Source: Candidatus Korarchaeum sp.
Lineage (GTDB): Archaea; Korarchaeota; Korarchaeia; Korarchaeales; Korarchaeaceae
Reading direction: 5' to 3'
Assembly: GCA_020833055.1 (NCBI GenBank)
Contig: JAJHQZ010000001.1
Coordinates: 248,001-312,000 of the forward strand
Length of the DNA: 64,000 nucleotides
Part shown: one piece after another, positions 13,965 through 36,378 of the stretch
Layout: each line of letters opens with the position of its first letter
Position numbering within the stretch: the stretch's first letter is position 1
Position numbers and translations under genes: made by a program
Notes under the pieces: generated by a model
Database searches by the model: none
Told to the model about the DNA's origin: nothing
The model's input: the letters and a program-made list of their open reading frames with translations, nothing else

Positions 13965-15835
13965 GTGAGGATCTGAAGACTAAGGTGAAGAAATATTTCT
14001 CACAATACGCTAAGGTCGAGAAAGTAGAGCTGGAAGGTCCATTCGTAACGCTCCTAGTTGAGAACCCCAAGGAAATACTGGATAAGCCAGATCTAGTGGT
14101 TAATGCAGCCAAGACACTGAAGAAGAAGATAATAATACTCGCTAGTAAGCCCCTGATGGATGAGACAGCTGCCGCTGAATTCATAAGGAAGACAATACCT
14201 GAGAACGCTGAGATAGAGGATCTTAAGTTCGTTCCAGAGACAGGAGAAGTCTACATAGTAGCTAAGAGGACGGGATACGTCGTTGGAAAGGGAGGAGCTA
14301 ATATAGTGGAGATATTGAAGGAGACAGGATGGAGACCTATTGTTATGAGAGCTCCGACTATAAGATCAACCTTCTTAGACATATTCTACAATGCAATAAT
14401 ATCCGGAGCTCCTGAGAGGAAGAAAGTGATGAAGAGACTATCTGAGAGGATCTTCAGGTCCCCTCTGAACCTCAATAGGGGTCTCTACGCCACCTTCCTC
14501 GGCGCAGCTAGGGAAGTCGGGAGGAGCTCTATCTTAATAACGACAGATGAGAGCACAATACTTCTAGACTGTGGGATAAGTCTATCCGGAAAGAACGTCT
14601 TCCCTAGATTTGATCTGATAGATATAGATGAGCTAGACGCTGTAATAATAACACACGCTCACTTAGATCACTCCGGTGCTCTACCACTCCTCTTCAAATA
14701 CGGTTACAGGGGTCCTGTCTACTTAACGAGACCGACGAGGGATTTGATGATGCTACTACTCTACGATTACATAAATCTCTCCCAGAGAGTGGGTTCTATC
14801 CCCTTCTTCTCATGGAGGGATGTAGTCAACATGATGAATCACACGATAACGCTCGATTATACTGAAACAGTGGATATATCTCCAGATATAAAGCTGACTT
14901 TTTACAACGCTGGCCATATACTCGGCTCGGCCTTAGCCCATCTCAACATAGAGAGCGCGAGGCATAACGTCCTTTATACTGGCGACTTCAGATTCAGGGA
15001 CACTAAACTACTCGATAAAGCTGTTAGGAAGTTCCCAAGGGTGGAGACCCTCGTAATGGAGTGCACATACTGTGGGGAGTCAGATGTACTACCGAGCCTC
15101 TCTGAGGCTGAGGAAATGCTCTTCTCGATAATAAGGGGGACGGCTGAGAGAGGAGGCAAGGTCCTGATACCAGCATTAGCTGTAGGGAGAGCTCAGGAGA
15201 TAATGCTCTCATTAGTCGATGGCTTCGAGAGGGGAATCCTCCCAGATATACCAGTTTATCTAGATGGTATGATATACGATTCGACTGCTATACACTCCGC
15301 ATACCCGGATTACCTCTCAAATTACGTCAGGGAGAGTGTCTTCAAGAGAGACAGGGATCCCTTCACAGAGCCCCATTTCAACTTCATAAGCTCTGATGAG
15401 AGGCCTGATGTGACTAAAGGGGGGCCCGCTGTCATAATAGCTCCATCAGGTATGCTGACTGGTGGACCTAGTGTAGATTACCTCAAGTTGCTCGCTCCTA
15501 GCGAAGAGAACTCGATAGTGCTCGTCAGTTATCAAGCTGAGGGTACCCTGGGCAGGAAGCTGAGGGATGGAGTGAGGGAACTGAGGCTCCAAGATGAGGA
15601 GGGTTATATAACGCTAAAAGTCAAGGCGGATGTGAGGGTAGTTGAGGGCTTCAGTGCGCACGCTGACAAAGTCCAGCTCCTCAGTTACTTGAGTACGATG
15701 GAACCGAGACCCCACAGAGTCTTCTTAGTCCATGGAGAAGAGGAGAAGATGAGGGAATTTGGGCCCCTGGCCTCTAGATCTGTCTCTATTAGGGCGATAT
15801 CTCCGCAAATAGGTGAGACCTTTAAGCTAGCTTAA
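13961..15835 (+). CDS. KH / beta-CASP ribonuclease aCPSF1
   Basis: aCPSF1 is the archaeal CPSF73-like nuclease implicated in 3'-end cleavage and transcription termination. The 624-residue layout is standard: two N-terminal KH-type domains (GKGG at 109-112), then the metallo-beta-lactamase core with HAHLDH at 232-237, GHILGSA and YTGDFRFRD, then the beta-CASP insert and the final VEGFSAHADK and VHGEEEK motifs. It is translationally coupled to psmB. It overlaps the sepF 3' end by four bases. Confidence 0.95.
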   Translation: MSEDLKTKVKKYFSQYAKVEKVELEGPFVTLLVENPKEILDKPDLVVNAAKTLKKKIIILASKPLMDETAAAEFIRKTIPENAEIEDLKFVPETGEVYIVAKRTGYVVGKGGANIVEILKETGWRPIVMRAPTIRSTFLDIFYNAIISGAPERKKVMKRLSERIFRSPLNLNRGLYATFLGAAREVGRSSILITTDESTILLDCGISLSGKNVFPRFDLIDIDELDAVIITHAHLDHSGALPLLFKYGYRGPVYLTRPTRDLMMLLLYDYINLSQRVGSIPFFSWRDVVNMMNHTITLDYTETVDISPDIKLTFYNAGHILGSALAHLNIESARHNVLYTGDFRFRDTKLLDKAVRKFPRVETLVMECTYCGESDVLPSLSEAEEMLFSIIRGTAERGGKVLIPALAVGRAQEIMLSLVDGFERGILPDIPVYLDGMIYDSTAIHSAYPDYLSNYVRESVFKRDRDPFTEPHFNFISSDERPDVTKGGPAVIIAPSGMLTGGPSVDYLKLLAPSEENSIVLVSYQAEGTLGRKLRDGVRELRLQDEEGYITLKVKADVRVVEGFSAHADKVQLLSYLSTMEPRPHRVFLVHGEEEKMREFGPLASRSVSIRAISPQIGETFKLA

Positions 15836-16218
15836 TCCGGGCTACGCCATATCTCGACGAACCTTGGAACTATTAATATCGGGGGATAGCCCCTATCCCT
15901 TATCATCACTAGGTCTCCGCCCATCTCTAATACTCTCTCCTTCAACCTCTGGACCATGAACTTGAGCTTCTCCTCCCCCTCTGAAGCGAGATCATCGTAC
16001 CTCAGGAGCACTATATTCCCCTCATTTATCTCATTCAATATCTGCTCGACATCCTCAGCGTTCCTCAAGTTCATCGGTTTGACTGTTATAGCTTTCTCAG
16101 ATAGGACTCTCGGTCTAGCTGGCTCGATTTCTACGGGCTCTTCCTCAAATTCCTCCTCTTCCTCATAATATTCTTCCTCCTCATGCTTGCCCCCGAATAT
16201 CTTCCTGAAGAAACCCAT
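15832..16218 (-). CDS. sepF: Cell division protein SepF
   Basis: SepF tethers FtsZ to the membrane in FtsZ-bearing archaea. It begins with the amphipathic membrane-targeting helix MGFFRKIFGG, followed by a long Glu-rich linker and the globular SepF core (KAITVKPMNLRNAEDVEQIL ... EGNIVLLRYDDL ... GGDLVMIRDRGYPPILIVP). Length 128. ftsZ is in the same window at 34952-36220. It is divergent from the Sm-like gene with a shared palindromic TATA box. Confidence 0.93.
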   Translation of the reverse strand: MGFFRKIFGGKHEEEEYYEEEEEFEEEPVEIEPARPRVLSEKAITVKPMNLRNAEDVEQILNEINEGNIVLLRYDDLASEGEEKLKFMVQRLKERVLEMGGDLVMIRDRGYPPILIVPRFVEIWRSPD

Positions 16219-16250
16219 GATCGCACCCGGTATAGAGGGGAGGGCGCGGT

Positions 16251-16258
16251 ATTTAAAT
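16251..16258. promoter_or_regulatory. Palindromic TATA shared by sepF and the Sm-like gene
   Basis: ATTTAAAT at 16251-16258 is a perfect palindrome. It is placed so that starts about 26 bases away would lie near 16281 for the Sm-like gene (ATG 16287) and near 16228 for sepF (ATG 16218). No other TATA candidate lies in the 68-base spacer. Confidence 0.55.
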
Positions 16259-16286
16259 TATAAAGGACTTAAGGTCGGGGAACGGT

Positions 16287-16529
16287 ATGTCGAGCGCCAT
16301 GAGGTACCTCGCTAAGAGCATGAACGGAAGCGTGCTAGTGATGCTGAAGAATGGAGTCTACGTTAGGGGGATATTGAAGTCTTATGATAACCATCTGAAC
16401 TTGATACTTGATAACGCTGAGGAGATAATGGAAGGGAATACGAAGAAGCTGGGGAAGAGGGTCTTGATAAGAGGGGATAACGTGATAGCCATATCGACTC
16501 AGAAGATAGAGATAGGTGAGGGAGAATGA
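16287..16529 (+). CDS. Sm-like archaeal protein (SmAP/LSm)
   Basis: The 80-residue product forms ring-shaped RNA-binding oligomers. The Sm1 motif is [20 protein letters not shown] and the Sm2 motif is [10 protein letters not shown]. The stop overlaps the L37e start as ATGA, the usual LSm-rpl37e pairing of archaea. Confidence 0.95.
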
Positions 16530-16687
16530 AGGGAACTCCGTCGATGGGAAGGAGGAGCCGAGGGCAAACTCATATCAGATGTAGGAGGTGCGGAAGACAT
16601 TCATTTAACGTTAGAAAGGGATACTGCGCTTCATGCGGCTTCGGGAGGAGCAAGAGATTACGCAGCTACGCATGGGCGAAAGTTTAA
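16526..16687 (+). CDS. rpl37e: 50S ribosomal protein L37e
   Basis: The 53-residue product reads [20 protein letters not shown], then the zinc ribbon CRRCGRHSF...[11 protein letters not shown] and a basic tail. It is coupled to the LSm gene by ATGA. Its stop codon lies within the TATA region of the tRNA-Ala gene (TTTAAAAA at 16683-16690). Confidence 0.96.
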
Positions 16688-16713
16688 AAAAGGCCCTATA
16701 GAATTAGTGTAGG

Positions 16714-16786
16714 GGGCCGGTGGCGCAGTTGGTAGCGCGCCCGCTTGGCATGCGGGAGGTCGGGGGTTCGAATCCCCCCCGGTCCA
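16714..16786 (+). tRNA. tRNA-Ala(GGC)
   Basis: The acceptor GGGCCGG pairs with CCGGTCC (one G-U pair). The anticodon stem CCCGC/GCGGG has loop TTGGCAT, anticodon GGC. The T arm is GGGGG-TTCGAAT-CCCCC. Discriminator A is at 16786 and no CCA is encoded. TATA 16683-16690 predicts a start near 16712. Confidence 0.95.
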
Positions 16787-16790
16787 CTAA

Positions 16791-16862
16791 GCCGGGGTAG
16801 CTCAGAGGGAGAGCGTCCGGCTGAAGACCGGAAGGTCGAGGGTTCAAATCCCTCCCCCGGCA
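16791..16862 (+). tRNA. tRNA-Phe(GAA)
   Basis: The acceptor GCCGGGG pairs with CCCCGGC. The D arm is short (GCTC-AGAGGGA-GAGC). The anticodon stem TCCGG/CCGGA has loop CTGAAGA, anticodon GAA. The T arm is GAGGG-TTCAAAT-CCCTC. Only four bases separate it from tRNA-Ala, so the two are probably one transcript. Confidence 0.95.
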
Positions 16863-16921
16863 CTTCGCTAGTTTTGAGGTCGATTTCACGCTGAGGATGC
16901 GTGTCGTCATACATGATCGAG

Positions 16922-16950
16922 ATGTCCGGAAATTTCATGTATCCGGACAT
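16922..16950. repeat. Perfect 9-bp inverted repeat (hairpin)
   Basis: ATGTCCGGA at 16922-16930 and TCCGGACAT at 16942-16950 are exact reverse complements with an 11-base loop. They lie 60 bases after tRNA-Phe in a 267-base spacer with no protein gene. The hairpin could end the tRNA transcript, be part of a small RNA, or bind a dimeric regulator. There is no clear C/D-box pair around it. Confidence 0.6.
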
Positions 16951-17120
16951 TGAGGAGGCTCGCTAGGTGAAGAGTGAAGTCGATCTGTCACTTTTTCCAA
17001 AAAATTTTTACTTTCACCTTCAGTTAATTATATTATTTGATTTGGCTCATAACTTGAGCTAGAGCTAATATCACTGTGGGAAAAGATAACATAATATAGG
17101 GAACCCTCAACTTAATTTAG

Positions 17121-18479
<1,359 letters not shown>

Positions 18480-18497
18480 ACATTTTTTTACCTCTAG

Positions 18498-18971
18498 ATG
18501 AGGACTATACCCGGGAGACCGGAAGTATTCAGAGTGAGTGATAAGTACCTGATATTAGTCGGTCTAAGGGGTAAGCCCAGGTCTAGACCTGAGAATATCG
18601 CCCTAATACCAGCTCCTCTGATAGCTTCGAAGAGACATCTCCTCATGGCAGTGATAAGAGCTATTAGGAGCTTCCATTATGGTGTTAACATATCTGATAA
18701 GTTCGCTTACGAAGTCTGCGTGTGTCTCCTAGGAATCAGAGAAGTATCTAAAGTAATAAAGCTACTCTCAGTCGATCAAGACGAATACGCTTTGATCATA
18801 CAATGTGAGAGAATAGAAGATTGTCTGAGGTCTCTAATCAGAATAACAATGGAAGATGTAACTCTATCTGATATTAAAGTGACTTACGAACCTCAGAAGC
18901 TGACTAGTTGCACTGGTAACATTGAATGCATCGCGATGGAGCAGGGGATCCCCATAGAGCTCGAGAGGTAG
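18498..18971 (+). CDS. KEOPS complex subunit Cgi121-like
   Basis: Cgi121 is the Bud32-binding subunit of KEOPS, which makes the t6A tRNA modification. The 157-residue product has the core IALIPAPLIASKRHLLMAVI and the helical-sheet pattern CVCLLGIREVSKVIKLL ... DEYALIIQCERIEDC, matching the family. Support comes from context: a prefoldin gene follows, and bud32 is 3 kb away. Sequence similarity is moderate, so confidence is not complete. Confidence 0.75.
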   Translation: MRTIPGRPEVFRVSDKYLILVGLRGKPRSRPENIALIPAPLIASKRHLLMAVIRAIRSFHYGVNISDKFAYEVCVCLLGIREVSKVIKLLSVDQDEYALIIQCERIEDCLRSLIRITMEDVTLSDIKVTYEPQKLTSCTGNIECIAMEQGIPIELER

Positions 18972-19006
18972 TAATATTAAGTAATCCGGAGGGGGCTCCA
19001 GAGAGT

Positions 19007-19327
19007 ATGCCATCAGACGAGTACCTTCAGGCGAAGGCCGAGGAGATATTAGCTGAGTTGAATCAGGTTTTAGTTCAATTAGCGACGCTCAGAGCTGAGT
19101 ATAACTCAGTAAATGAGGCAATAAGGAGGCTCGAGAGACTCCCAGAAGTGGATGAGATATTCGAGAGGGTCGGAGTGCTCTACATAAGGAGGGACAGGGA
19201 CTCCGTGCTCCTAGATCTGAAGGCGGCTAAGGAGACTCTAGAAGCTACGATAAAATCCCTTGAGAAGAAGGAGAGGGACCTCAGGGAGACTTTGAGCAGA
19301 GTAACTGGCTCTACTCAAAGTAGCTGA
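19007..19327 (+). CDS. Prefoldin beta-like subunit
   Basis: The product is almost entirely coiled coil (EYLQAKAEEILAELNQVLVQ ... KAAKETLEATIKSLEKKERD) around a short hairpin (VDEIFERVGVLYIRRDRDSV), the prefoldin beta plan. From ATG 19007 it has 106 residues; GGAGGGGG lies 10 bases upstream. The open frame further upstream overlaps Cgi121 in another phase and is probably not translated. It is convergent with the RecJ-like gene (17-base overlap). Confidence 0.85.
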   Translation: MPSDEYLQAKAEEILAELNQVLVQLATLRAEYNSVNEAIRRLERLPEVDEIFERVGVLYIRRDRDSVLLDLKAAKETLEATIKSLEKKERDLRETLSRVTGSTQSS

Positions 19328-20648
19328 GCAGGTTTTCCTCGAAGTCCCCCTTCATTTTCCTAGGTATCTGAGCACCCGCTGCATACTTATGTCCCCCTCC
19401 CCTCCCTCCAACTTTAGTTGAGGCTCTCCTCAGGATCTCATTCAGATCGAAATCGCTGATCCTATTCGTGAGTCTAGCAGATACTTTCAACATATCTCCC
19501 TCTGTTTCAGCGTATCCGATGACTAGATCCACGTTCTTGATGCTCTTACTCATTATCGATGTCACTGTGCTTATGATCGTGTCCTCAGCGATACCTTCAT
19601 CTATGAAAGCCACCTTCCCGACAACCCTGGGCTTGAGATCCCTCAGTAAACTTGAGAGATGTTTTTTATACTCCTGTTGGACCGATAACGCTGAGGAGAG
19701 GATCTCGCCCCTCATCCCTGCTGCTAAAAGAACTCCCAAGTATCCCCTCCCCATCCTACCGCATGCATTGAGGAGAGTCGAGAAACTCGATAAATCCCTC
19801 AGGGGTGAGCCCTTGGGCTCCATCAGATTAACATAAGTATTTCCCAGTAAGGATTTCGCCTTATCTAAGCTCTCAACTCTCTTGACCAACTCGTTCAATA
19901 GATCCCTCTTCTGATCCTCGCTCAGATCAGATAGCGTGACCCACTTCTCCCCTATCTTTATGGGGATCCCTAGAGATTCTATTAGGCTCAGAGCCCCAGC
20001 TGAATCATCTGAAACACCCCTTATGAATGGCTCGACGGTCCTCTCAAGGGAGGAGACGAGAGGATAATCGGGGCCACCGAAAAGTTTTATCTCCTTCCTG
20101 ACTTCTATTATCCCTCTCTCGATACCCCAATTCAATATAGTCTCATTCAGCCCGCTGAAACCCCTCTCCTCTTGGAGATCGCCTAGGGCTCCAGCTAGAG
20201 CTACTGGCACCATGGAGTAATCCTTGAAGAATTCTCTGTAGAGGAGGAAGCATAAGCCCGAGGAACTCACATCCCTATCCCCATCTATGCCGTATATGAA
20301 TGGATTCAACATCGGGATATCTCCACTGGATGGCCTGTGGTGATCTATAACGAAGACACGCTTACCTATCGATTTCAGGAGCTCAACTTCCCCTGAACCT
20401 AAATCTAAGAATACGCAAAGTTCATAAGGTTCTCTCTTAAGACTATCTACTAGTGATTCATTCAAGTATTTAACTGAGCTCAAGTGGAAAGGTACCTTAA
20501 ACTTCTTAAGGATTGAGATGAATATACCAGCCGAACTGAGACCATCAGCATCTATATGAGAGATTACTCTCACATGAGATTCCTTAAAGCTCTCATAGAG
20601 TTCATCTGCAAACTCCCTTACCTTATAAAAGAATGAGTTTAGTTCCAT
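19311..20648 (-). CDS. DHH-family nuclease, archaeal RecJ-like (GAN type)
   Basis: The 445-residue DHH phosphoesterase has motif I VISHIDADGLSSAG, motif II FLDLGSGE, motif III VIDHHRPS, a further acid in ALAGALGDL, and the DHHA1 nucleic-acid-binding motif GGRGGGHKYAAGAQIP. Archaeal relatives are single-strand exonucleases linked to the CMG helicase. It lies directly after rps15 (one-base gap), a common archaeal order. Confidence 0.9.
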   Translation of the reverse strand: MELNSFFYKVREFADELYESFKESHVRVISHIDADGLSSAGIFISILKKFKVPFHLSSVKYLNESLVDSLKREPYELCVFLDLGSGEVELLKSIGKRVFVIDHHRPSSGDIPMLNPFIYGIDGDRDVSSSGLCFLLYREFFKDYSMVPVALAGALGDLQEERGFSGLNETILNWGIERGIIEVRKEIKLFGGPDYPLVSSLERTVEPFIRGVSDDSAGALSLIESLGIPIKIGEKWVTLSDLSEDQKRDLLNELVKRVESLDKAKSLLGNTYVNLMEPKGSPLRDLSSFSTLLNACGRMGRGYLGVLLAAGMRGEILSSALSVQQEYKKHLSSLLRDLKPRVVGKVAFIDEGIAEDTIISTVTSIMSKSIKNVDLVIGYAETEGDMLKVSARLTNRISDFDLNEILRRASTKVGGRGGGHKYAAGAQIPRKMKGDFEENLLSYFE

Positions 20649-20649
20649 T

Positions 20650-21105
20650 TCAGGCCGCGTAGAGTTCAGCTAACTCCGGAGTGTAGTGCCAATCTGGTGG
20701 GAGCTTACCGACCCTCTTATAATATTTCACGAGCCTTCCTATCTTAGACTCAGTTAATATGAGCCCTCTCTTAGCGTGAAGATCTTTCTTATGCTCCTCT
20801 AGATGTTTCCTTATCCTGTAAGCTTTTCTTATCAGGGCCATGAGATCCTCAGGTATCTTCGGGGCCACTCCACCCTCCTCAAGTATCTCCGTTATCTTCT
20901 TACCAGTGATCCTCTTGACTAATGGGACTCCGTACTCATCCCTCAAGATCATCCCTATCTGGCTGGGTGGTACTCCCCTCTTACCTAACTTTATAACTAG
21001 TTCCTCTATCTCTTCCTTCTTCATCGGGACCCAATCTAGTGAGAAACTCTTAGGTGGTCTCTTCGACTCAGATTTACCTTTCTTCCTGCTGTGAAGCCTC
21101 GCCAT
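20650..21105 (-). CDS. rps15: 30S ribosomal protein S15p/S13e
   Basis: At 151 residues it is the long archaeal/eukaryotic S15 form. The N-terminal extension is [20 protein letters not shown]. The core is [20 protein letters not shown], and the C-terminal S15 signature is [25 protein letters not shown]-like element at about 21152-21162 (minus strand) predicts a start near 21130. Confidence 0.96.
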
Positions 21106-21174
21106 ACTTTCACCTCTCTATTCATCCCTCCCTCCCCTAACATCCACTCCTATTTATTTTTATCCTCAGCCGGG

Positions 21175-21390
21175 GGCTGATGTTCTCGCTCGGTTGAGGA
21201 GATTAAATACATGAAGGACAGGGGCTCGGGTGCGTCGAGCCCTACCGAGTTTTATTAACGATCTTGCCCAATCCCTACCTAGATCCCCGGTAAGGATGTT
21301 GCCTGTATTCGGTTCTGAGCATCGATCGGATCCTCTAGATGATATAACATGAACTCTTCGAGAAGAATCCAAATCCCTTAGTCGATGATC
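21175..21390 (-). ncRNA. Candidate structured non-coding RNA upstream of rps15
   Basis: The 326-base gap between rps15 and the HAM1 gene has no convincing protein. On the minus strand TATTTAAAG (about 21403-21411) would start a transcript near 21383. The following stretch holds a strong hairpin (GGGCTCG/CGAGCCC, 7 bp, 7-base loop) nested inside a CTCGGT/ACCGAG pairing, and at about 21168-21182 TCAGCC/GGCTGA with a 3-base loop. It ends just before the rps15 TATA. It is not recognised as SRP RNA or RNase P RNA. The strand is inferred from the TATA box alone. Confidence 0.35.
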
Positions 21391-21431
21391 TCCAATGAAC
21401 CCTTTAAATACCTCCTCATAGACGCACTGAG

Positions 21432-21992
21432 TTAAACGGATTGAAGCTCGCCGACCTCAATTCTCATCAGGAAATCCCTTAACTTGCGGCAAGATGCCCC
21501 TCTGTGCGAGAATTTATCCTTCTCCTCCCCCAGCTCTCCGTAGGTCTTATCAGAACCGCTAGGGATGAATATAGGATCGAATCCCCATCCCCCTCCTCTC
21601 ACCTCTTTCGCTATTGTCCCCTGAACGCTCCCTTTGAAGACCTCTATCCTCCTATCATAGCTCAAAGCTATAACTGAGATGAAAGAGGCCCTTCTATCCT
21701 CTATGCCATCCATCAACTTCAGGATACCCTCATTCCCGATCTTCTTGTATACGTAAGAGGAATAGGGGCCCGGGAAGCCACCCAGCGCTTCTATGAAGAG
21801 ACCTGAGTCCTCTATGAAGAAGGGCTCCCTGATGTAATTTGACAACCACTTCGCAGATGTCACGACTACCTCCTCTATATCCTCCCCCTGAGGCTCCAGA
21901 TAGTCCACCTCGAGGAATTTGAGATCGATTACATCTGAGAGCATCCTCTTGAACTCCTCATACTTATGCCTGTTGGAGGACGCGAATATCAC
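21432..21992 (-). CDS. XTP/dITP pyrophosphatase (HAM1/RdgB)
   Basis: The enzyme clears non-canonical purine nucleotides (XTP, ITP, dITP). Its motifs are IFASSNRHKYEEFKRML at the N-terminus, FFIEDSGLFIEALGGFPGPY, and near the end GFDPIFIPSGSDKTYGEL and FSHRGASCRKL. Length 186 is normal. The start GTG 21992 overlaps the bud32 stop as GTGA. Confidence 0.95.
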   Translation of the reverse strand: MIFASSNRHKYEEFKRMLSDVIDLKFLEVDYLEPQGEDIEEVVVTSAKWLSNYIREPFFIEDSGLFIEALGGFPGPYSSYVYKKIGNEGILKLMDGIEDRRASFISVIALSYDRRIEVFKGSVQGTIAKEVRGGGWGFDPIFIPSGSDKTYGELGEEKDKFSHRGASCRKLRDFLMRIEVGELQSV

Positions 21993-22573
21993 TTATACCT
22001 ACCCCTGGCCTCTACCTCCCCCAGTCTCTTTATTACGCGTTCCGCGATATCGCAATTCCTATATCCCCTGAGGAATGAATCCCATAGCGGCTCCCAATCA
22101 TCTGTTATCGATTTCAGGGATCTCTTCAGTACATAGAGATCGACCGCATAACTCTCTATATCATGCGTATACTCCGCTAGCCCGAAATCCAAGAGACATA
22201 TACCACTCTCATTCACGATCGCATTATAAGGTGTCAGGTCGTTATGCGCTATATTAGCTCTGTGAAGCTTGCAAGAAGCTAGACCAAAGGCGAACATACT
22301 TTCCTCATTTATAGAATCAGCCATTCTAATTCCTTGTATGTACTCCATCATTATAGAATCACCCCAAACATCTAGAATAGCTGGCACAGGAACTCCAGCT
22401 ATCCTAGCTCTCCTCATGAGTCTCGCTTCTTTCCTCGTCCTCATCATCCTGATAATCCTATCTAACTCACTTACCCTATACCCCTTACTCACTCTCTTCT
22501 TTATCACGACGGGGAGGCCCAGGAAGTCCGCTTTATAGAGCTCAGCTTCAGCCCCTCTATAGATCAACTCCAT
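21989..22573 (-). CDS. bud32: Bud32 kinase/ATPase of KEOPS
   Basis: Bud32 is the small atypical kinase of the KEOPS t6A complex. The 194-residue product has a minimal kinase fold: GAEAELYKADFLGLPVVIKKR (ATP-binding Lys), catalytic NIAHNDLTPYNAIV, and DFGLAEYT. It is free-standing, not fused to Kae1. It sits in a minus-strand operon pcm-bud32-HAM1 with overlapping ends. Cgi121 is nearby at 18498. Confidence 0.93.
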   Translation of the reverse strand: MELIYRGAEAELYKADFLGLPVVIKKRVSKGYRVSELDRIIRMMRTRKEARLMRRARIAGVPVPAILDVWGDSIMMEYIQGIRMADSINEESMFAFGLASCKLHRANIAHNDLTPYNAIVNESGICLLDFGLAEYTHDIESYAVDLYVLKRSLKSITDDWEPLWDSFLRGYRNCDIAERVIKRLGEVEARGRYK

Positions 22574-23229: not shown

Positions 23230-23243
23230 CCGGGTGCTTCAGT

Positions 23244-24727: not shown

Positions 24728-24918
24728 CCAATCACCTCGTAGCCCCTAGGAAACAATTTTCAACTTCTTGACGCGTGCTCCTAGCATCTTTCGAGTTTAT
24801 AAATTCGACATCACTCTATTCCTAAATAGATTAAGTGATCAGAGCTAAATTCCTCGCGATAACACAGTGCGGAATCTTTAAATAGGGGAGATCTATGATT
24901 ACCGTAGCGGGGTTAGGC

Positions 24919-27248: not shown

Positions 27249-27262
27249 GAGCTTCCCCCTCG

Positions 27263-27685: not shown

Positions 27686-27752
27686 GATCCCCCCTCGATC
27701 GAGGGGGAGGGTAAGATAAAAAGGTGAACTTAGCCTGAGCTACGTGCAGGCA

Positions 27753-28246: not shown

Positions 28247-28320
28247 GATAACACTTAGTTGCTCTGAAGTTTTAGCTTATAAACTTAAGGATACGAGTTC
28301 ACGAAAGTTCTGTTAATTAA

Positions 28321-28807
28321 CTAAGCATGAGTCCTATCGAAGTATATGTTCTTAGGGGAAGCGTTGAGCGGTATCCCGAGGACTATATCCGCATCCAACA
28401 GCTTCATTTTCATCGCAGCCCTTCCTACTGTGAACATTATCCTGTTATCTACATTTAGAAGGGAGGCTGTCTTGACAGCAGAACCTAGGGCGATTCCTAG
28501 GTTCAAAATGCTCAAGATCATGTCCTCAGAGATCCATATCTGTCATCCTATTCCCCATAATCTCCACTATCTTGCATCCGATCAGCAAGAGGACCTTGCT
28601 GTTTCTCAAGCTTCTTGCATCCCTTAAGTAAGCCTCACCCAACTCTGAGGAGAGCTTCTCCATCTCACCAGCGATCTTCCCTATTGTCTCATCATCTTCG
28701 ATGATCTTGCAGACGATGTTATCAACTCCTCTCGCCTTCGGAGCAGTTATAGCTGAGATCTCCATCAGTTTAGCGACTTGAACTAAGGTCTCCTTGATCT
28801 CATTCAT
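28321..28807 (-). pseudogene. DUF2148-family protein, frame-broken and lacking the Cys-rich segment
   Basis: Two frames together make one DUF2148 protein. The first (28807-28526) has ITAPKARGVDNIVCKII and RDARSLRNSKVLLLIGCK. The second (ending 28321) has LNLGIALGSAVKTASLLNVD, NRIMFTVG and LDADIVLGIPL...KNIYFDR. The switch is at CTC-TGA (about 28526-28531), where a +1 shift would continue as SEDMILSILN. The ferredoxin-like Cys cluster (C-G-x-C-G-type) usually found between these halves is absent. A full read-through would be 161 residues. Confidence 0.75.
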
Positions 28808-29081
28808 ACTACTTCATGTCTCAAAAAATTAATTAAGTTTCTCCTGAGGATCTGAATGAAGCTCACAGCCAGCAGAGCTCCTAGTATACTTAACTTACAT
28901 TTCACTAATGAGGCAATGCAAATATATCTACACTCTATTCCAGTAGGAATTCTTTAATATAGCGTTGTAAGTATTATATACATATTTATTTTCCCAGAAT
29001 GAAGGGCCTCAGAACTCCATAACTTTATTAAGACGGGAAATCCTCAGCTTCATTGAGAGGCTGTTTAGAGGGGTGGTCGAT

Positions 29082-29366
29082 ATGGTAACTAAGAAGTCCG
29101 AGAAGATCAAGGAATATGAAGCCCTCCTCTCAGAAGCAATACAAAGATTGGATAGGATCTCCCAAGATAGGAACGTCCCTAGGAACATAAGGAGGGCTAC
29201 TACTGAGGCTATAGAGGTCCTGAGGGATGGGAGGAGCAGTTACGGTGTGAGATCGAATAAAGCGATCTCAATATTGAATGATATCGTTAATGATATAAAC
29301 ATGCCTTTCCCAACAAGGTCAGAGATATTACTTATAGTCGGTTTGCTTGAAAAAATCAAGGATTAA
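29082..29366 (+). CDS. UPF0147 family protein
   Basis: This small helical archaeal protein (94 residues from ATG 29082) contains RISQDRNVPRNIRRATTEAI and DINMPFPTRSEILLIVGLLE, both typical of UPF0147. GAGGGGTGG lies just before ATG 29082, so the in-frame GTG 29073 is less likely. A TATA-like ACTTTATTAA lies near 29020. Function is unknown. Confidence 0.85.
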   Translation: MVTKKSEKIKEYEALLSEAIQRLDRISQDRNVPRNIRRATTEAIEVLRDGRSSYGVRSNKAISILNDIVNDINMPFPTRSEILLIVGLLEKIKD

Positions 29367-30093
29367 ACTTACTACAAAGCAAAGATATTATCTTACTTTT
29401 TAATAAGATATTCTCGAAAATGAGTGAATTTTTGTCTAAATCCAATCTCATCTTTGTTCTTTTTATATCAGAGAGCATCGATAATGTGTAATTCAGGAGG
29501 TCCAGTAAATCTCCAGCTCTCAACTCCCTCAGTATCTCAATCATCCTCTCAAGAGAGCTCGCTGTCTCTTTAAGCTGGTCTGAGAACTCCTCATCGAAAT
29601 CACTAGCTCTCCTTAACCTTTCCACTGCCTCATTTAATATTCCGGAATATATTTCAGCTTTCCTCTCATCTATCTCACTAGACTTCTCACAACAAATCTG
29701 TATTGAGCTCACTAAAGAGGAGAGAATCCCTATAGTTACATCTAGCTCTCTCATCATCTTCAAACTCGTTGATGATCTGAAATCGATGCTTTGCTGTATC
29801 CTCTCCTTGGCCCAACTTATCTGGGTCTCTAATTGCTTAACTTTAGAGGAGAGATCCTCAACTCTCTCCTTCAGCTTCGCGATGGCTTGAGGGCCGTACT
29901 CCTCTAAGAAGCTCCTGAAGGACGATTTACTGACCTCCATAAGCTCTATAAGAGAGTCAGGTATATCTGTGGAGAGATCATCGAAGCACCTTATATTAGA
30001 TCTACTCAGGATCTCCGCTATTTTCTCCCCCTTCTCCTCTCCGAAGTACTCCTTCAGGGAGCTGAGTAGATAGCCGGACACCTTGCCCCCCAT
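29356..30093 (-). CDS. Coiled-coil protein, unknown function
   Basis: The 245-residue product starts with a helical, helix-hairpin-helix-like region (LLSSLKEYFGEEKGEKIAEI ... SNIRCFDDLSTDIPDSLIEL), then long coiled coil (KLKERVEDLSSKVKQLETQI), and a helical C-terminal half. No catalytic motif or membrane span is seen. The HhH-like start and coiled coil could suit a DNA-binding or scaffold role, but this is conjecture. It overlaps the UPF0147 3' end by 11 bases. Confidence 0.5.
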   Translation of the reverse strand: MGGKVSGYLLSSLKEYFGEEKGEKIAEILSRSNIRCFDDLSTDIPDSLIELMEVSKSSFRSFLEEYGPQAIAKLKERVEDLSSKVKQLETQISWAKERIQQSIDFRSSTSLKMMRELDVTIGILSSLVSSIQICCEKSSEIDERKAEIYSGILNEAVERLRRASDFDEEFSDQLKETASSLERMIEILRELRAGDLLDLLNYTLSMLSDIKRTKMRLDLDKNSLIFENILLKSKIISLLCSKFNP

Positions 30094-30544
30094 GGATTCA
30101 TCAGCATATGGATTTGAGGGAGCTTTTTCAACTTTCTGAGTCAGCTCTCTAGATCTCAGTTAAGCCCTTCATTGGACGGATCTCGGGGTATTAGCGAGCA
30201 ACATCTGTCAGTATGTTAGATTCGAATTTAATAAAATTGTAGTTATCAGTTATTATCGATATAAACATTTGAATATATCGCTCAACATAACTACTCCGGG
30301 ATTTATTTTATAGCCACTGAAGTCTATGGAGGAGTTCATCAGAACTTTCAGACAGCAAATATATAATAACAATAAAACAGACTAGGGAATTGGGTATGAT
30401 ATTAACATTATTATCCTTTTCGGATTGAAAAACCGTCCACAAGGCTCAATTATCTTATACGATACACAATTCTATATGAGAACTAAAGCTTACATTAAAG
30501 AAAACTTTATATTACAATAATTCGATCTAGCTGGGGATGTAGAT
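30094..30544. other. AT-rich spacer with no gene seen
   Basis: This is a 451-base gap between divergent genes. It is AT-rich with stops in all frames. ACTTTATATTAC at about 30506-30517 suits a TATA box for the gene at 30545. I see no tRNA, repeat array or stable hairpin. Confidence 0.6.
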
Positions 30545-30952
30545 ATGAGCGTCGATATAGAGTTCCTGAGACCTTGGGAAGTCACTACGAGAGCTGAAAA
30601 GAGGGGGAGCTTCCTAGAGGTGGAGAATAAGCTTTCATCCATATGGAAGGTGAGGATAAGGAATAAAAACTACATAGTACCCGTGACGATGACTATCACT
30701 AGCAGAGGAATTTTCGTCACTTACTTATCTAATAAGCCCGATGGTGATGGGTACTCTCCTATAGCCAGATGCTACGCTGTCGATGCCGCGAAGGAATGCT
30801 TGGAGGATATCGTAAGAAGGTACCCGGATTTCGAGTTCAATAGCGTTACGATAGGTGAGATAATAGAGGAATGCGTCAGCGAAAGATTGAAGAAGAAAAT
30901 AGGGGCCTTCGGAGATGTTAGAATAGAATGTGGTGCTATTAAGATAGAGTAA
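30545..30952 (+). CDS. Hypothetical protein
   Basis: The 135-residue product is alpha/beta with no signal peptide. The first half is beta-rich (KRGSFLEVENKLSSIWKVRI ... VPVTMTITSRGIFVTYL). The second half is helical (AVDAAKECLEDIVRRYPDFE ... IGEIIEECVSERLKKKIG). A TATA-like sequence near 30510 and purine-rich AGCTGGGGATG before ATG 30545 support expression. No family is recognised. It lies in a stretch of lineage-specific genes (29.4-31.3 kb). Confidence 0.5.
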   Translation: MSVDIEFLRPWEVTTRAEKRGSFLEVENKLSSIWKVRIRNKNYIVPVTMTITSRGIFVTYLSNKPDGDGYSPIARCYAVDAAKECLEDIVRRYPDFEFNSVTIGEIIEECVSERLKKKIGAFGDVRIECGAIKIE

Positions 30953-31062
30953 CAATTCGCTTGAACTTTTTAATATCCCGATAGGAGTCCCATAGTGAGA
31001 TCTTTTATGAGTTAGAACGCTATCGAAACTCTAGATGGTAAGTTATCGGCGACTTGGATGAG

Positions 31063-31109
31063 AGACGGGAGGTTGAAGGTGTTACTAAGAGATATTTGAG
31101 ATCCCGTCT
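31063..31109. repeat. Inverted repeat with 8-bp perfect arms
   Basis: AGACGGGA (31063-31070) and TCCCGTCT (31102-31109) are exact reverse complements 31 bases apart. They sit at the 3' end of the gene at 31114, so on the minus strand they could form a post-stop hairpin that aids termination or protects the mRNA end. Confidence 0.45.
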
Positions 31110-31113
31110 TGGG

Positions 31114-31341
31114 TTAATCGACCCTTATACTCTCACTGAGCCAGAGTTCGGGGGGAAGCTTGACCTTGATCATAGTATAAGCTGAAGAGATGAGACCTTC
31201 GGCCTCATATATCAACCAGTATACTTCATCGGGTGCTATCTCCTTGGCCCTCACGAGGAGGTTCACCGCACCATACAGTTTCTTCAATATCTCATCGACA
31301 TCGTCTAATTCGAAGCATATCCCTGAGTCTCTCACTCTCAC
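31114..31341 (-). CDS. Small hypothetical protein
   Basis: The 75-residue product is helical: LDDVDEILKKLYGAVNLLVRAKEI and APDEVYWLIYEAEGLISSAY, ending IKVKLPPELWLSESIRVD. This resembles a helical-hairpin dimerisation or toxin-antitoxin-like accessory protein only in general shape. It has its own AT-rich upstream region shared with nothing obvious. No function can be given. Confidence 0.5.
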   Translation of the reverse strand: MRVRDSGICFELDDVDEILKKLYGAVNLLVRAKEIAPDEVYWLIYEAEGLISSAYTMIKVKLPPELWLSESIRVD

Positions 31342-31417
31342 GAAAATATCTCTGAGTGTTCCTTATATTAACTTTACTGTTTAAATTTTAAAGATAATCT
31401 CCCAATTAGATGCAATG

Positions 31418-32317
31418 TCATAACTCGAAGATACCGTCTTCCCTTATGATGAAAGCTGCTTGCCCGGGCGGGAGGTAGGAGGAGTCCTCTAAGGTCACTA
31501 TCACCTTCCCCCTCACCTTCCTGAAGCAGAGCATGTTATGCGGCGTGTGTGAGAGGACGAAGCCTCCTTTGGAATATAGGTCCCTTCCCCATTTTATCGC
31601 ATGCATCGTCATTATAACAACGCTCCCCCTATCAGCGATCCTCCTCAATGATACGAGGGCCTCTTGGAGATCCTCCTGCCTCTCCCTCAATCCCTTGAGC
31701 CCCCCATACTGCCTGAAGGGATAAGAGATAGAGTCCAGACAGACTAGCTTAGAGGTGCCCGATCTGACGTAACCCATCGCGATATCGAGCGCTTCCTTGA
31801 GCTGAATTATGTTATTCACTCTGAGGACATCTATCCTGGAGAGATCCCCCTCCGATAGATTGTTCTGCCTTAGGAAGACAGAAGCTCTCTCCGGATCGAA
31901 TGTGCCCTCCGTATCTATGAATATAGCCCTCTCAGAGGAAATTCCACCCTTTTCCTCATTCATCAAGGATCTGACAGCCATATAAATGCAGAACTGAGTT
32001 TTCCCTGAGGCTGGAGGCCCGTATATACCTGTAATAGTTCTAATCCTTAACCCCCCTCCTAAGAGCTCATCTAAGCCCTTCATACCGGTCCTCAGTTTAC
32101 TCTCTCTCCCTAGGAGCTTATCAGCCGTGAGGGGCTTCAGTAGAAGTGAAGATACTTCCTTCAGGATCTCTCTAGCTACTTCCCTATCGACTCCAAGCTC
32201 CTTTGAGAGCTCGCTATCCGACATGAGGATGAGGTCATCCAAATTAATGCCCTTCCTCCTCAATATCTCGATGTACTTCTCATCCACTCTTCCTGAAAGG
32301 GAATCTAGCTCCATCAA
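31418..32317 (-). CDS. RadA/Rad51-family recombinase-like ATPase
   Basis: An N-terminal helix-hairpin-helix domain (KYIEILRRKGINLDDLILMS ... ELGVDREVAREIL) precedes a RecA core with Walker A GIYGPPASGKTQFC, AIFIDTEGTFDPERA, and Walker B LVCLDSIS. The 299-residue length is shorter than typical RadA, the L2 loop region is cut down, and the usual VTNQV strand is replaced by IMTMHA. It may be the organism's RadA in divergent form or a RadA paralogue. It overlaps the carS stop by four bases. Confidence 0.8.
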   Translation of the reverse strand: MMELDSLSGRVDEKYIEILRRKGINLDDLILMSDSELSKELGVDREVAREILKEVSSLLLKPLTADKLLGRESKLRTGMKGLDELLGGGLRIRTITGIYGPPASGKTQFCIYMAVRSLMNEEKGGISSERAIFIDTEGTFDPERASVFLRQNNLSEGDLSRIDVLRVNNIIQLKEALDIAMGYVRSGTSKLVCLDSISYPFRQYGGLKGLRERQEDLQEALVSLRRIADRGSVVIMTMHAIKWGRDLYSKGGFVLSHTPHNMLCFRKVRGKVIVTLEDSSYLPPGQAAFIIREDGIFEL

Positions 32318-32793
32318 TGAGCTACCTCCTTTATCCCAATAGCATGAGCTATGAAGTTAGTCCCCCAGTGTAATATAGGCGTTATTATCAGGAGGAATAT
32401 CGCTGACTCAATCGCTACTTTCTCTATCGGGTAAGCGAAAATCAGGGAGAATATGAGGAACCCCTCCTGATCTAGTAGAGGTGCTGATTGCCCCTCCACT
32501 AATCCGATCCTCCTCTTTACGAAGGAACCGAAGCAGTCACCGACCATAGCGCCTAGCGATAGAGCGAAGCCCTGAAGGAGCCTCCCTTGGATGAAACCGA
32601 CGAATGTCCCGACAATTATACCTGAGAGGAATCCCCTTATCGTCTTATGATCCCCTAATATCCTCCTCCCATCCCTGAATCTCTTACCCATATCTAAGGG
32701 CCTCCCCCCTCCGAAGAGCACTGGGGACATGTTAGCGAAGTAAGATGGAAGTATGTACCAAATAGCCTCTAATACGAAGCTGATATCCATCAT
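32314..32793 (-). CDS. carS: CDP-archaeol synthase (CarS, DUF46)
   Basis: CarS activates digeranylgeranylglyceryl phosphate with CTP in archaeal phospholipid synthesis. This 159-residue integral membrane protein has YILPSYFANMSPVLFGGGRP, LDMGKRFRDGRRILGDHKTIRGF and GAMVGDCFGSFVKRRIG, all diagnostic. It sits in a chain of overlapping minus-strand genes from the XPD-like helicase to the RadA-like gene. Confidence 0.94.
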   Translation of the reverse strand: MMDISFVLEAIWYILPSYFANMSPVLFGGGRPLDMGKRFRDGRRILGDHKTIRGFLSGIIVGTFVGFIQGRLLQGFALSLGAMVGDCFGSFVKRRIGLVEGQSAPLLDQEGFLIFSLIFAYPIEKVAIESAIFLLIITPILHWGTNFIAHAIGIKEVAH

Positions 32794-33227
32794 ATCACCT
32801 CTACGCTATCGAAGATCTTGAGGAACCATTCAGGAACATCGCTCTCCGTCGTATACATACTGACTGAGGATCCGCACTGCCTCTCGATAGATCTTATCAT
32901 ATTGAGGAGGAGGAGGAAGGATCTCTGGAGCTTATAGGGCTCAGGAGAGGAGCTAGCTGCCCTAAGGTAAGCACCGGAGATCTCATCCACGAGACCAGAA
33001 TTGAACTTGAGGGAATCTGTGAAGAGCATTAAGGATGTCACGATAGGGGAGGAGAAGGATGGGATTATGAGGACGTCCTTTCTCTCCCTTACGAGATCCT
33101 CTATTATATTGAGGGTCCTAGGCTCATATGAAAGTATCACGAGCTTCCTCCCGCTATCGAGAAGTGCTTTAACTTCCTTCCTCATAGCATCTGCTTTCGC
33201 TTGAGGGGAGCATATCTTCAGCAACAT
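32790..33227 (-). CDS. Hypothetical protein between XPD-like helicase and carS
   Basis: The product is up to 145 residues and I recognise no family. It has an alpha/beta start (GRKLVILSYEPRTLNIIEDLV, ERKDVLIIPSF) and a helical centre. The longest start overlaps the helicase C-terminus by 59 bases; ATG 33185 (MRKEVKALLDSG) overlaps by only 17 and is likely. Its stop overlaps the carS start by four bases. Co-translation with neighbours is likely; function is unknown. Confidence 0.5.
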   Translation of the reverse strand: MLLKICSPQAKADAMRKEVKALLDSGRKLVILSYEPRTLNIIEDLVRERKDVLIIPSFSSPIVTSLMLFTDSLKFNSGLVDEISGAYLRAASSSPEPYKLQRSFLLLLNMIRSIERQCGSSVSMYTTESDVPEWFLKIFDSVEVI

Positions 33228-34893
33228 CCATTCCCTTCATGGGAGACTTCCTATTAAAGAATTCCTGAGCTGAAGGGACTAAGTCCTCTAGCCTTACGTA
33301 CTTGATCCCCCTCCTCATCCAAGGAGGCATCATACTCAAGCAAGAGGAGAACCTCCTATCCACGAAAGCTATGAAGCCCATATCATCCTGAGACCTAACT
33401 GGCCTCGCTGCTGCCTGGATAGCTGATCTGCAGGCATTTATCAGGATTGGATCCTCCAGCTTCGTGTATCTCCTCCATAAGATCTCCTGAACTCTACCTA
33501 AAGTATCGGGTTTCGATAACTGGAGGCCCAGGACTATGGATGCTGTCATCTGCAAACCTGGGAAATCTTCCCCCTCGCTGCTCCTCCCTCCTTGGACTCC
33601 GAGTAGGATGGCACCGATAGAGGACATGCTCTTGAATTCCGAGATCATTCTAGATAGTTCATGCGAGTCCATATCCTTCCTCTCAATGAAGATGGGTTTC
33701 TCAACCATGTTCTCAAAACCGGCATTCAGTATGCCCTGGAGGACTTCATAAGAAGAGGCAAATATCCCCATATTCCCAACTACAGCTTCAGAGAGTTCAG
33801 CTAATGTCGATGCTATCCTGTAGAACTCCAGCCTGCTCCTCTCCTCAAACCTCGTCGTGAAGTCCCTCACGATGAACGATGCAACTTCCCCCCAACGATC
33901 TAAAGATATGCGTTCATAATTCAATTCCTCTAGAATCTCTCCCCTCGCTACTTCCTCGCTCCAAGTTCCCGAGATCAGCAGAACTGATTTGAACCTCTTC
34001 AGGGATTCCTCCAAGCTCCTATCGACTCCCTTGAGGAAGATCAGATTCGGTAACTCTAATATGATACGTTTAGATCCCTCAACTTCGCTCAGGATCCACT
34101 TAGAGAAATGCTCGAAGGGTTTTGGGACTGATGAGAGGCATTCCCTGAGGAGGTAAATTAGGTAATTCTTAGGTACCTCCAAGCTCTGTAATCCCGATCT
34201 CCGCAGGGATCTCACGATATCAATCCACCTCTCGCATAACGAGTTGAGGACTCTCTCGATCTTCTCTATCTCTATAGTGGTTACGATACGAGAGAGCCAG
34301 AACTTCCTGAGATTGTGGGCCTCATCTATTATCAAGTAATCCGGGTCGAATCCCTTGAGCACGGAGTAAAGTTCTTCTTCGAAGAGATACGGATAACAGA
34401 GGACCACGGCATCGTATCCATTGATAATCCCTAGAGATGCGTAATATGGGCAGGAATCAACTTCCAAGAGGAGAGGATCGTGGCATCTCCTCGCTTCTCT
34501 AATCTTAGGTGGATAATAGGGACAATTTCCCAATTTCCTGAGCTCCTCACATTTCATATTCATCAAGAAGTTATTCTTAATTCTCCTGACCTTCCAATTG
34601 ATGCAGATCTCCCCCTTCCCCCTCAGAGCGATCATCCTTATCTTGGGGAACTTGAGGCATTCCTCCATCACTCTACTAACCTGGCTATGTGTCCTGACAG
34701 CGTAGATGAATCTAGCTCTCTCTAACTCGGAAAGGCAACTTATAGCAGATAAAACACCCGATGTCTTCCCTAATCCACTAGGAGCTTCGATAACATTTAT
34801 TCCTCCCTTAAGGGATCTCAAAACTGCATATATGAACTCAGCTTGACCTCTCCTCATCGTAGGATAGGGGAAGTGCTCCTCTATCTTACACAC
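33169..34893 (-). CDS. XPD/Rad3-like (DinG family) DNA helicase
   Basis: This is a superfamily 2 helicase of 574 residues with a probable iron-sulfur cluster. Walker A is IEAPSGLGKTSGVLSA. The Fe-S Cys candidates are GEICINW, KCEELRKLGNCPYY and SCPYYA. The DEAH box is LIIDEAHNLRKFW. Motifs V/VI-like are LLGVQGGRSSEGEDFPG and AACR/QAAARPVRSQDD. Archaeal XPD opens DNA 5'-3' in repair. Divergence in helicase motifs means it could be a paralogue of canonical XPD. Confidence 0.85.
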   Translation of the reverse strand: MCKIEEHFPYPTMRRGQAEFIYAVLRSLKGGINVIEAPSGLGKTSGVLSAISCLSELERARFIYAVRTHSQVSRVMEECLKFPKIRMIALRGKGEICINWKVRRIKNNFLMNMKCEELRKLGNCPYYPPKIREARRCHDPLLLEVDSCPYYASLGIINGYDAVVLCYPYLFEEELYSVLKGFDPDYLIIDEAHNLRKFWLSRIVTTIEIEKIERVLNSLCERWIDIVRSLRRSGLQSLEVPKNYLIYLLRECLSSVPKPFEHFSKWILSEVEGSKRIILELPNLIFLKGVDRSLEESLKRFKSVLLISGTWSEEVARGEILEELNYERISLDRWGEVASFIVRDFTTRFEERSRLEFYRIASTLAELSEAVVGNMGIFASSYEVLQGILNAGFENMVEKPIFIERKDMDSHELSRMISEFKSMSSIGAILLGVQGGRSSEGEDFPGLQMTASIVLGLQLSKPDTLGRVQEILWRRYTKLEDPILINACRSAIQAAARPVRSQDDMGFIAFVDRRFSSCLSMMPPWMRRGIKYVRLEDLVPSAQEFFNRKSPMKGMDVAEDMLPSSESRCYEEGS

Positions 34894-34951
34894 AAAGAGG
34901 GAGCTCGCTCAAGATTAATGGTGAGAGATTCCGGAGGGTTTATGAAAACTT

Positions 34952-36220
34952 TCAGAGGACGTATGGGCTCCCGAGGACCTCCTCGAGGACTTCCACTGGA
35001 TCGTACTTCCCATCTACTGAGACACTGAGGGGCTCCGTCCTGAGAGGTACGTCAGGGCCGAGCATGTCCGGGGACCTTATGCCGGTCAGGAGCAATATCA
35101 CCCTTATGCCGTCCCCCAGCGATTCATCTATATCGGCACCTATCTTTATTATAGCATCGCTCGACATCTTAGAGGCTACTATCTCCGTTATCTGATGGAC
35201 CTCAGTGAGCCTCATGTTCTTCCCACCGTAAACGACGACAAGAGCACCTTTAGCTCCCTCTGGAGATATCTCTATCAATTGATTCCTCAAGGCCATCTTA
35301 ACCGCTTCCTCCCCCCTCCTCTTTGGATCCGATGATTCCCCTATGCCCACAGCAGCTACACCTCCTACGGACATCAGGGTCCTTATATCGTTCAGATCGA
35401 CGTTCACCATAGTCCTCTTCCTTATTATCTCAGCTATCCCTTTCACCATGACTGCTAAAGTCATATCGGCTATCATGAAAGCTTCATCGAGGGGTCTATC
35501 ACCAGCTAATTTCAGCAACTTGTCATTAGATATTAGGACAACTGTATCAGCCCACTTCCTGAGTTGCCTTATCCCCTCCTGAGCTAGCTTGTACTTATGC
35601 CTCCCCTCTGTCCTGAAGGGGAGCGTAACGAAGGCTATTATCTTCGCTCCCTTATCCTTAGCTATTTTAGCGACTACTGGAGCCGCGCCCGTCCCTGTTC
35701 CCCCTCCCATACCAGCTGCTATGAACACGAGATCGGGCCTGTTCCCTAGAGCATCGGATATCTTATGAGCATCTTGCTCAGCGCAAGCCCTGGCTACCTC
35801 AGGCCTCCCTCCAGCCCCTAAGCCGTGAGTTATGCTCTCCCCTATCAGGACTTTATAAGGGGCATTTATACCATCTAAATGGACTTTATCCGTATTTATC
35901 GCAACGAGCTTTATCCCCTTTATCCCTAGCTTGCTTATGTTATCTATCGTATTAGAACCGCAGCCGCCCACTCCTACTATTATCAAGTTACCCGTGACGG
36001 AATCCTCATCATCGTAGTCATCTACCTCTACGGATCTAGCTGATCTCAGGAAATCGTCTGAACTTATTACACGACGGCCCTCACTTACGTTAATCTTCTC
36101 TCCCTTGATAACTTTAGCCTTCTCGAGGGAGCCCTCTCGAGGTAAGTTGTCGAATATCCTTCTGAAAAGATCTAGCATTTCCTTAGCTTGAGAAGATACG
36201 GATTCCTCAGCAAAAATCAA
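34952..36220 (-). CDS. ftsZ: Cell division protein FtsZ
   Basis: This tubulin-like GTPase of 422 residues has [16 protein letters not shown], the tubulin signature [10 protein letters not shown] (about 172-181) and the T7 loop NVDLNDI (about 273-279) that completes the neighbouring GTPase site. An extra N-terminal region of about 75 charged residues precedes the core. Start TTG 36220 has AGGAGGTG seven bases before it and overlaps the upstream RHH gene stop as TTGA, so the pair is translationally coupled. SepF is at 15832. Confidence 0.96.
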
Positions 36221-36378
36221 TATGCGACACCTCCTGTGCTTTTCTTCCTATATTCCCTTATAAGAAGTCTTATAGCTTCCCTTATCGCCTCACTCTTACT
36301 AGTGAACCCGACCTCCTCTATGAGTCTCTCTAACTCCTTCATCAGGGAATTGGGTATGTGGAAGGAGACCACCACCAT
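36217..36378 (-). CDS. Ribbon-helix-helix DNA-binding protein in ftsZ operon (CdrS-like)
   Basis: The 53-residue product begins MVVVSFHIPNSLMKELERLI, then TSKSEAIREAIRLLIREY. This is the strand-helix-helix plan of MetJ/Arc/CopG repressors, with S-x-S-E-A-I-R typical of RHH dimers. It is just upstream of ftsZ and overlaps its start by TTGA. In haloarchaea the small RHH factor CdrS is encoded with ftsZ2 and controls division genes; a similar role is inferred here from layout alone. Confidence 0.85.
   Translation of the reverse strand: MVVVSFHIPNSLMKELERLIEEVGFTSKSEAIREAIRLLIREYRKKSTGGVAY

What the first reader, a model, noticed from the sequence alone, without database searches (positions are those of the whole stretch)
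15832..36378. Small RHH regulator coupled to ftsZ, with sepF elsewhere
A 53-residue ribbon-helix-helix gene (36217-36378) overlaps the ftsZ start by TTGA with a strong ribosome-binding site inside it. This mirrors the CdrS-ftsZ2 layout of haloarchaea, in a distant lineage. It suggests an old link between an RHH switch and FtsZ. SepF shares a palindromic TATA with an Sm-like gene.
Basis: partly seen in the sequence, partly recalled or inferred. Interest (0 to 1): 0.65.

Follow-up and report, generated by a model that had tools for sequence, protein, structure and literature searches.

The report
Self-regulated switch gene before archaeal ftsZ2
In a Korarchaeota genome a tiny DNA-binding protein gene sits directly in front of the cell-division gene ftsZ2, an arrangement already known from many archaea; what is new is a conserved DNA site, found once per genome, at the pair's own promoter, which suggests that the little protein controls its own operon.

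Summary
On the minus strand a 53-aa RHH_1 gene (36217-36378) overlaps the TTG start of ftsZ (34952-36220) by TTGA, with GGAGGTG 7 nt before it. A tree places this FtsZ in the FtsZ2 group; FtsZ1 lies elsewhere in the genome. The RHH gene precedes ftsZ2 in all 22 genomes of the same family where ftsZ2 was found (five genera), and in Thermococcus-like archaea (30/30 loci), haloarchaea and others. The layout is not new: Darnell 2020 reported cdrS-ftsZ2 co-occurrence across archaea except DPANN, having searched Korarchaeota, and Pende 2021 noted 'ftsZ2 frequently with parD'. New here is a footprint. In 15 of 16 genus genomes the rhh-ftsZ2 promoter carries an inverted repeat, WGTNACY-N6-RGTNACA (one mismatch in G008), preceded by a weaker third element, phased by 13 bp, 6-7 bp upstream of TATA. 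The strict palindrome occurs once per genome in 11 genomes, always here. Sites are absent at sepF and ftsZ1. Best reading: a CdrS-type regulator acting almost only on its own operon; binding is inferred and its sign is open. Thermococcus-like promoters carry a different inverted repeat (30/30). The shared sepF/Lsm TATA is a local feature of two species.

The parts
36217..36378 (-). 53-aa ribbon-helix-helix regulator gene
   Evidence: RHH_1 38.9 bits; 16/16 genus genomes
34952..36220 (-). ftsZ2, TTG start overlapping the rhh stop codon
   Evidence: Tubulin and FtsZ_C; outside the FtsZ1 clade in the tree, in a 99/99 Korarchaeal FtsZ2 clade
36228..36234 (-). GGAGGTG ribosome-binding site for ftsZ2, inside the rhh gene
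   Evidence: sequence; GGTG core conserved in the genus
36384..36388 (-). GGTGA ribosome-binding site for rhh
   Evidence: GGTG conserved in 16/16 genomes
36480..36487 (-). TATA box (TTTATATA) of the rhh-ftsZ2 promoter
   Evidence: TATA invariant in 15/15 aligned genomes
36492..36511 (.). operator core, inverted repeat TGTAACTCATAAAAGTAACA (elements B and C)
   Evidence: footprint and genome-wide uniqueness
36519..36523 (.). third, weaker operator element (GAAAC), 13 bp further upstream
   Evidence: AC at the same phase in 14 of 15 genomes
15832..16218 (-). sepF, FtsZ anchor gene; not linked, no operator
   Evidence: PF04472
16251..16258 (.). ATTTAAAT shared by sepF and Lsm promoters in this species and G010 only
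16287..16529 (+). Lsm (Sm-like) gene
   Evidence: PF01423
36717..38096 (+). gcvPA, divergent neighbour
   Evidence: NF001696 over cut-off

Best explanation
This is a CdrS-type regulator-FtsZ2 operon, inherited within Korarchaeota, with its own operator. The RHH protein and FtsZ2 are made from one mRNA with overlapping stop and start codons. The RHH protein, as dimers on GT-N-AC elements phased by 13 bp and lying just upstream of the BRE/TATA, controls transcription of its own operon, so that the FtsZ2 level is set by the regulator's feedback on itself. Shown: the overlapping layout, its conservation, the operator, its fixed geometry and its uniqueness in the genome. Inferred: one mRNA, that this RHH protein is the binder, that binding regulates, and the link to the division cycle. 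Sign unknown: the centre of the site lies near -45 from the expected start of transcription, the range where several CdrS sites lie in Haloferax (-41 to -50), which fits activation, but its edge also touches the BRE, which would allow repression.
For: RHH-ftsZ2 adjacency in all 22 Korarchaeal family genomes with ftsZ2 and overlapping or near-overlapping junctions. Footprint: GT and AC of both half-sites invariant in 15/15 aligned genomes and TATA at one distance. Strict palindrome exactly once per genome in 11 of 16 genus genomes, always at this promoter, reversed-pattern control 0 in those 11. Operator-plus-TATA pattern finds this promoter in 15/16 genomes, and the few other hits (G002, G007, G011, G014, G015) are singletons. 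A site used by one promoter only points to the locally encoded regulator. In Thermococcus-like archaea, 30/30 rhh-ftsZ2 promoters carry TAWTAY-N4-ATAWTA-type repeats at a near-fixed distance from TATA against 0.6 expected in shuffles. CdrS regulates ftsZ genes in haloarchaea (PMC7439475, PMC8406309).
Against: No binding or expression data. G002, G019 and G022 keep the predicted DNA-contact residues (V3, S5, H7 by alignment to NikR) but lack a clear copy of the operator: G002 and G022 at chance level; G019 has a one-mismatch copy, P about 0.04. In Haloferax the published list of CdrS ChIP sites (Table 1 as read) does not name its own operon, and in Halobacterium the operon is bound by CdrL, which is missing here. 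A second conserved small RHH gene exists in the genus and could be the binder.
Confidence: 0.7

Rival explanations
1. The operator is bound by another factor, for example the second small RHH protein of the genus (L309-L311), as CdrL controls cdrS-ftsZ2 in haloarchaea; the linked RHH acts elsewhere.
For: Second small RHH ORFs recur in the CdrS-family search of the genus and three were read; CdrL precedent (PMC7439475); mismatch between contact residues and operator in G002 and G022.
Against: The site occurs once per genome, next to the linked RHH gene; a factor encoded elsewhere would usually have a site at its own gene or others.
Confidence: 0.17
2. The conserved block is a core-promoter element (extended BRE or site of a general factor) and the palindrome is incidental; adjacency of rhh and ftsZ2 is only co-expression.
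For: It abuts the BRE and TATA.
Against: A general element would occur at many promoters; this one occurs at one.
Confidence: 0.08
3. The RHH gene is a leftover antitoxin (ParD-like) of a toxin-antitoxin pair that came to lie before ftsZ2.
For: A ParD-type antitoxin model matches 8 of 13 linked RHH proteins weakly; Pende 2021 labels the neighbour parD.
Against: No toxin gene next to it; strict conservation over five Korarchaeal genera and other archaea.
Confidence: 0.05

Closest known systems
CdrS-FtsZ2 operon of haloarchaea (Darnell 2020, Liao 2021)
   Same: Small single-domain RHH protein directly before an FtsZ2-type gene; cdrS is 3 nt from ftsZ2 in H. volcanii; several CdrS sites lie near -41 to -50 of their targets.
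   Different: No CdrL upstream (divergent gcvPA instead); score far below the CdrS model cut-off; conserved site at its own promoter and apparently only there, whereas Haloferax CdrS has 18 sites with its own operon not named among them.
aCcr1 of Sulfolobales
   Same: Small RHH regulator tied to the division machinery; 31.6 bits to its model.
   Different: Below its cut-off of 60; aCcr1 represses cdvA from a box between TATA and start codon (from memory of Yang 2023); Korarchaeota lack ESCRT-III (PMC8178401).
NikR (closest solved structure, 2bj1)
   Same: RHH N-terminal domain.
   Different: No metal-binding C-terminal domain.

Membership tests
CdrS (NF058555) | score over the curated cut-off (100 bits) | tested here: not met
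   30.8-31.0 bits; 0 of 160 genomes over cut-off
CdrS (NF058555) | small RHH_1 protein immediately upstream of an FtsZ2-type gene | tested here: met
CdrS (NF058555) | CdrL gene upstream (haloarchaeal loci) | tested here: not met
   divergent gcvPA upstream
CdrS (NF058555) | regulates ftsZ transcription | not testable with these tools
   only a conserved operator is shown
aCcr1 (NF053762) | score over cut-off (60 bits) | tested here: not met
   31.6 bits
aCcr1 (NF053762) | box between TATA and start codon of cdvA | tested here: not met
   the conserved site here is upstream of TATA and before rhh-ftsZ2; no ESCRT-III in Korarchaeota per PMC8178401
NikR | C-terminal metal-binding domain | tested here: not met
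   53 aa only
ParD antitoxin | partner toxin gene next to it | tested here: not met
   neighbours are ftsZ2 and gcvPA
FtsZ2 | groups outside the FtsZ1 clade | tested here: met
   FtsZ1 clade 97/99 excludes it

The most novel reading that the evidence does not exclude
RHH-ftsZ2 is an old self-regulating unit of archaeal division: the regulator sits before ftsZ2 in several archaeal lineages and each lineage has evolved its own palindromic operator at the same promoter (GTNAC pairs in Korarchaeota, TAWTAT-N4-ATAWTA in Thermococcus-like archaea, TTGTCNGACAA in family f12), with the operon as nearly its only target.
Probability: 0.4. Interest if true: 0.55.

Novelty: new member of a known kind. Interest (0 to 1): 0.4.

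Why it matters
How archaea time FtsZ-based division is largely unknown. The operator gives a concrete, testable control point for ftsZ2 outside haloarchaea. The same architecture in Thermococcus-like archaea brings the test into a lineage in which, from general knowledge, a genetic system exists, which Korarchaeota do not offer.

Tried and rejected
Looked for the operator at sepF and ftsZ1: best matches have 3 or more of 10 fixed positions wrong. A second wide-pattern hit in the window (53751-53770) lies inside a site-2-protease-like coding sequence; a look-alike in G005 lies in unrelated sequence. Shared sepF/Lsm TATA rejected as meaningful. Did not try a tree of the RHH proteins, since about 45 alignable residues cannot separate CdrS, aCcr1 and NikR. 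The named-genome scan returned many bacterial FtsZs; only its archaeal loci were useful. The first upstream alignment was made with loci in mixed orientation and discarded. Covariation between RHH contact residues and the operator was considered and not supported. Structure prediction was not run: RHH_1 is clear from sequence.

Full report
OBSERVATION. The two genes lie on the minus strand. The RHH ORF is 36217-36378 (53 aa from ATG 36378) and ftsZ is 34952-36220, starting TTG; stop and start share TTGA, and GGAGGTG lies 7 nt before TTG. Pfam gives RHH_1 at 38.9 bits (cut-off 20.5), Tubulin/FtsZ_C, and SepF and LSM for the genes at 15832-16529.

WHICH FTSZ. FtsZ_C hits in the own genome: one FtsZ outside the window (G000:C1:202696), this one, and a trio of diverged FtsZ-like genes on contig 7. 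A 99-row maximum-likelihood tree has a supported FtsZ1 clade (97/99, 43 rows, none with an upstream RHH). All 35 RHH-linked rows lie outside it; the Korarchaeal ones form one clade (99/99, 22 rows, all RHH-linked). So the linked gene is ftsZ2. Some long branches (G025, G109, the Thermococcus-like group) are not safely placed. The label needs at least 5 changes on the tree, so one origin with losses and several gains are both open.

DISTRIBUTION. Within the Korarchaeal family the RHH gene stands before ftsZ2 in the window's genus and four further genera. G023 and G024 have no ftsZ2 in their incomplete assemblies; G025 (same class, other family) has a very diverged second FtsZ without an RHH gene. 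Outside: family f10, 30/30 RHH loci followed by ftsZ2. f10 is Thermococcus-like (inference): its Spt5 matches PDB chain 9bct_G over all 152 residues at 278 bits, which I recall as Thermococcus kodakarensis, and its L11 best matches 4v6u, which I recall as Pyrococcus furiosus. Further: f12, f27, f65 and, by a diverged RHH, f53; and named Haloferax, Halobellus, a Halobacteriales MAG, Methanocorpusculum, a Thermoplasmatota MAG and a Euryarchaeota MAG. DPANN records such as Woesearchaeota lack it, as Darnell 2020 reported.

PRIOR KNOWLEDGE. [quoted passage not shown] Pende 2021 (PMC8178401) states that ftsZ2 is frequently next to parD and sepF has a variable context. The layout is therefore known. 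I found no report of an operator in Korarchaeota or of self-regulation by such an RHH protein, in the library available here.

OPERATOR. Aligning upstream DNA of the genus showed a conserved block before TATA. In 15 of 16 genomes it reads WGTNACY-N6-RGTNACA (G008 has C for R), with a third, weaker element 13 bp further out; AC at positions 5-6 and 18-19 is invariant, and AC at -8/-7 is present in 14 of 15. TATA stands at +27 to +30 in all, and the distance from the block to the RHH ATG is 112-115 bp in all. The strict pattern TGTNACN8GTNACA occurs once in each of 11 genus genomes and only here; the reversed control pattern gave none in those 11. The widened pattern adds the sites of G003, G007, G013 and G014 plus four scattered others. 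Of these four, the window one is inside a coding sequence and the G005 one matches nothing comparable; the other two were not examined. Requiring TATA 4-9 bp downstream leaves this promoter in 15 genomes, plus single, non-recurrent hits in G002, G007, G011, G014 and G015. No site at sepF (16 genomes) or ftsZ1 (6 genomes).

MECHANISM. A two-fold site of short subsites is what RHH dimers use (general knowledge of Arc, CopG and NikR). A site used at one promoter only, beside an RHH gene, makes that RHH the likeliest binder. Sign: taking transcription to start about 25 nt downstream of TATA (assumption), the middle of the pair lies near -45. In Haloferax several CdrS sites lie at -41 to -50 and CdrS is thought to activate ftsZ1. 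aCcr1, by contrast, is described as acting from between TATA and the start codon (memory; the papers are not held). The site also touches the BRE, so repression stays possible. Weak points: three relatives with the same ribbon residues do not show a clear site, and a second small RHH is conserved in the genus.

OTHER LINEAGES. f10 promoters carry TAWTAY-N4-ATAWTA-type repeats, 30/30 against 0.6 expected in Markov shuffles, about 11-14 bp before the AAARTATTTAAC box; the pattern was read from the same sequences and they are related, so the count is not a clean probability. In f12, TTGTCNGACAA lies just downstream of TATA at rhh-ftsZ2 in 12 of the 29 loci returned, but it occurs elsewhere too and the reversed control is as frequent genome-wide. 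Haloferax Q22 and Halobellus have GTAAGAC-N4-GTCTTAC before cdrS. These suggest the same architecture with changed sequences; not proven.

SEPF. G000 and G010 have a short sepF/Lsm spacer (68 bp in the window) with one palindromic box; in relatives the spacer is longer and sepF keeps TTTAAATA. Ordinary.

VERDICT. Correct observation, known kind, with a new and testable operator; interest 0.4.

Noticed in passing
G000:C7:13603-18405 (outside the window): Three diverged FtsZ/tubulin-like genes in tandem (about 335 aa each), also seen as two or three copies in G005, G010, G011, G012 and G021; role unknown.
   Followed up: no
L309:861, L310:720, L311:875: A second small RHH protein (about 66-70 aa, MSQQVSLQVDKELIDAIDALVSEGMFKSRSEAIKAAL...) recurs in most genus genomes, beside an ORF that looks like an Lrp-type C-terminal domain.
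   Followed up: partly
L179 and L184, upstream of cdrS: GTAAGAC-N4-GTCTTAC inverted repeat and further GTCTTAC copies at the haloarchaeal cdrS-ftsZ2 promoter; candidate CdrL or CdrS site.
   Followed up: no
L100 and L101, about 90 bp upstream of rhh: Two CCCGCGGG palindromes flank the TATA box of the rhh-ftsZ2 promoter in genus g2.
   Followed up: no
window 41728-41834, minus strand: tRNA found by Rfam over 107 nt but missed by ARAGORN, probably intron-containing.
   Followed up: no
sepF start in L084-L099: sepF starts with TTG in most genus members but ATG in the window's clade of five.
   Followed up: no
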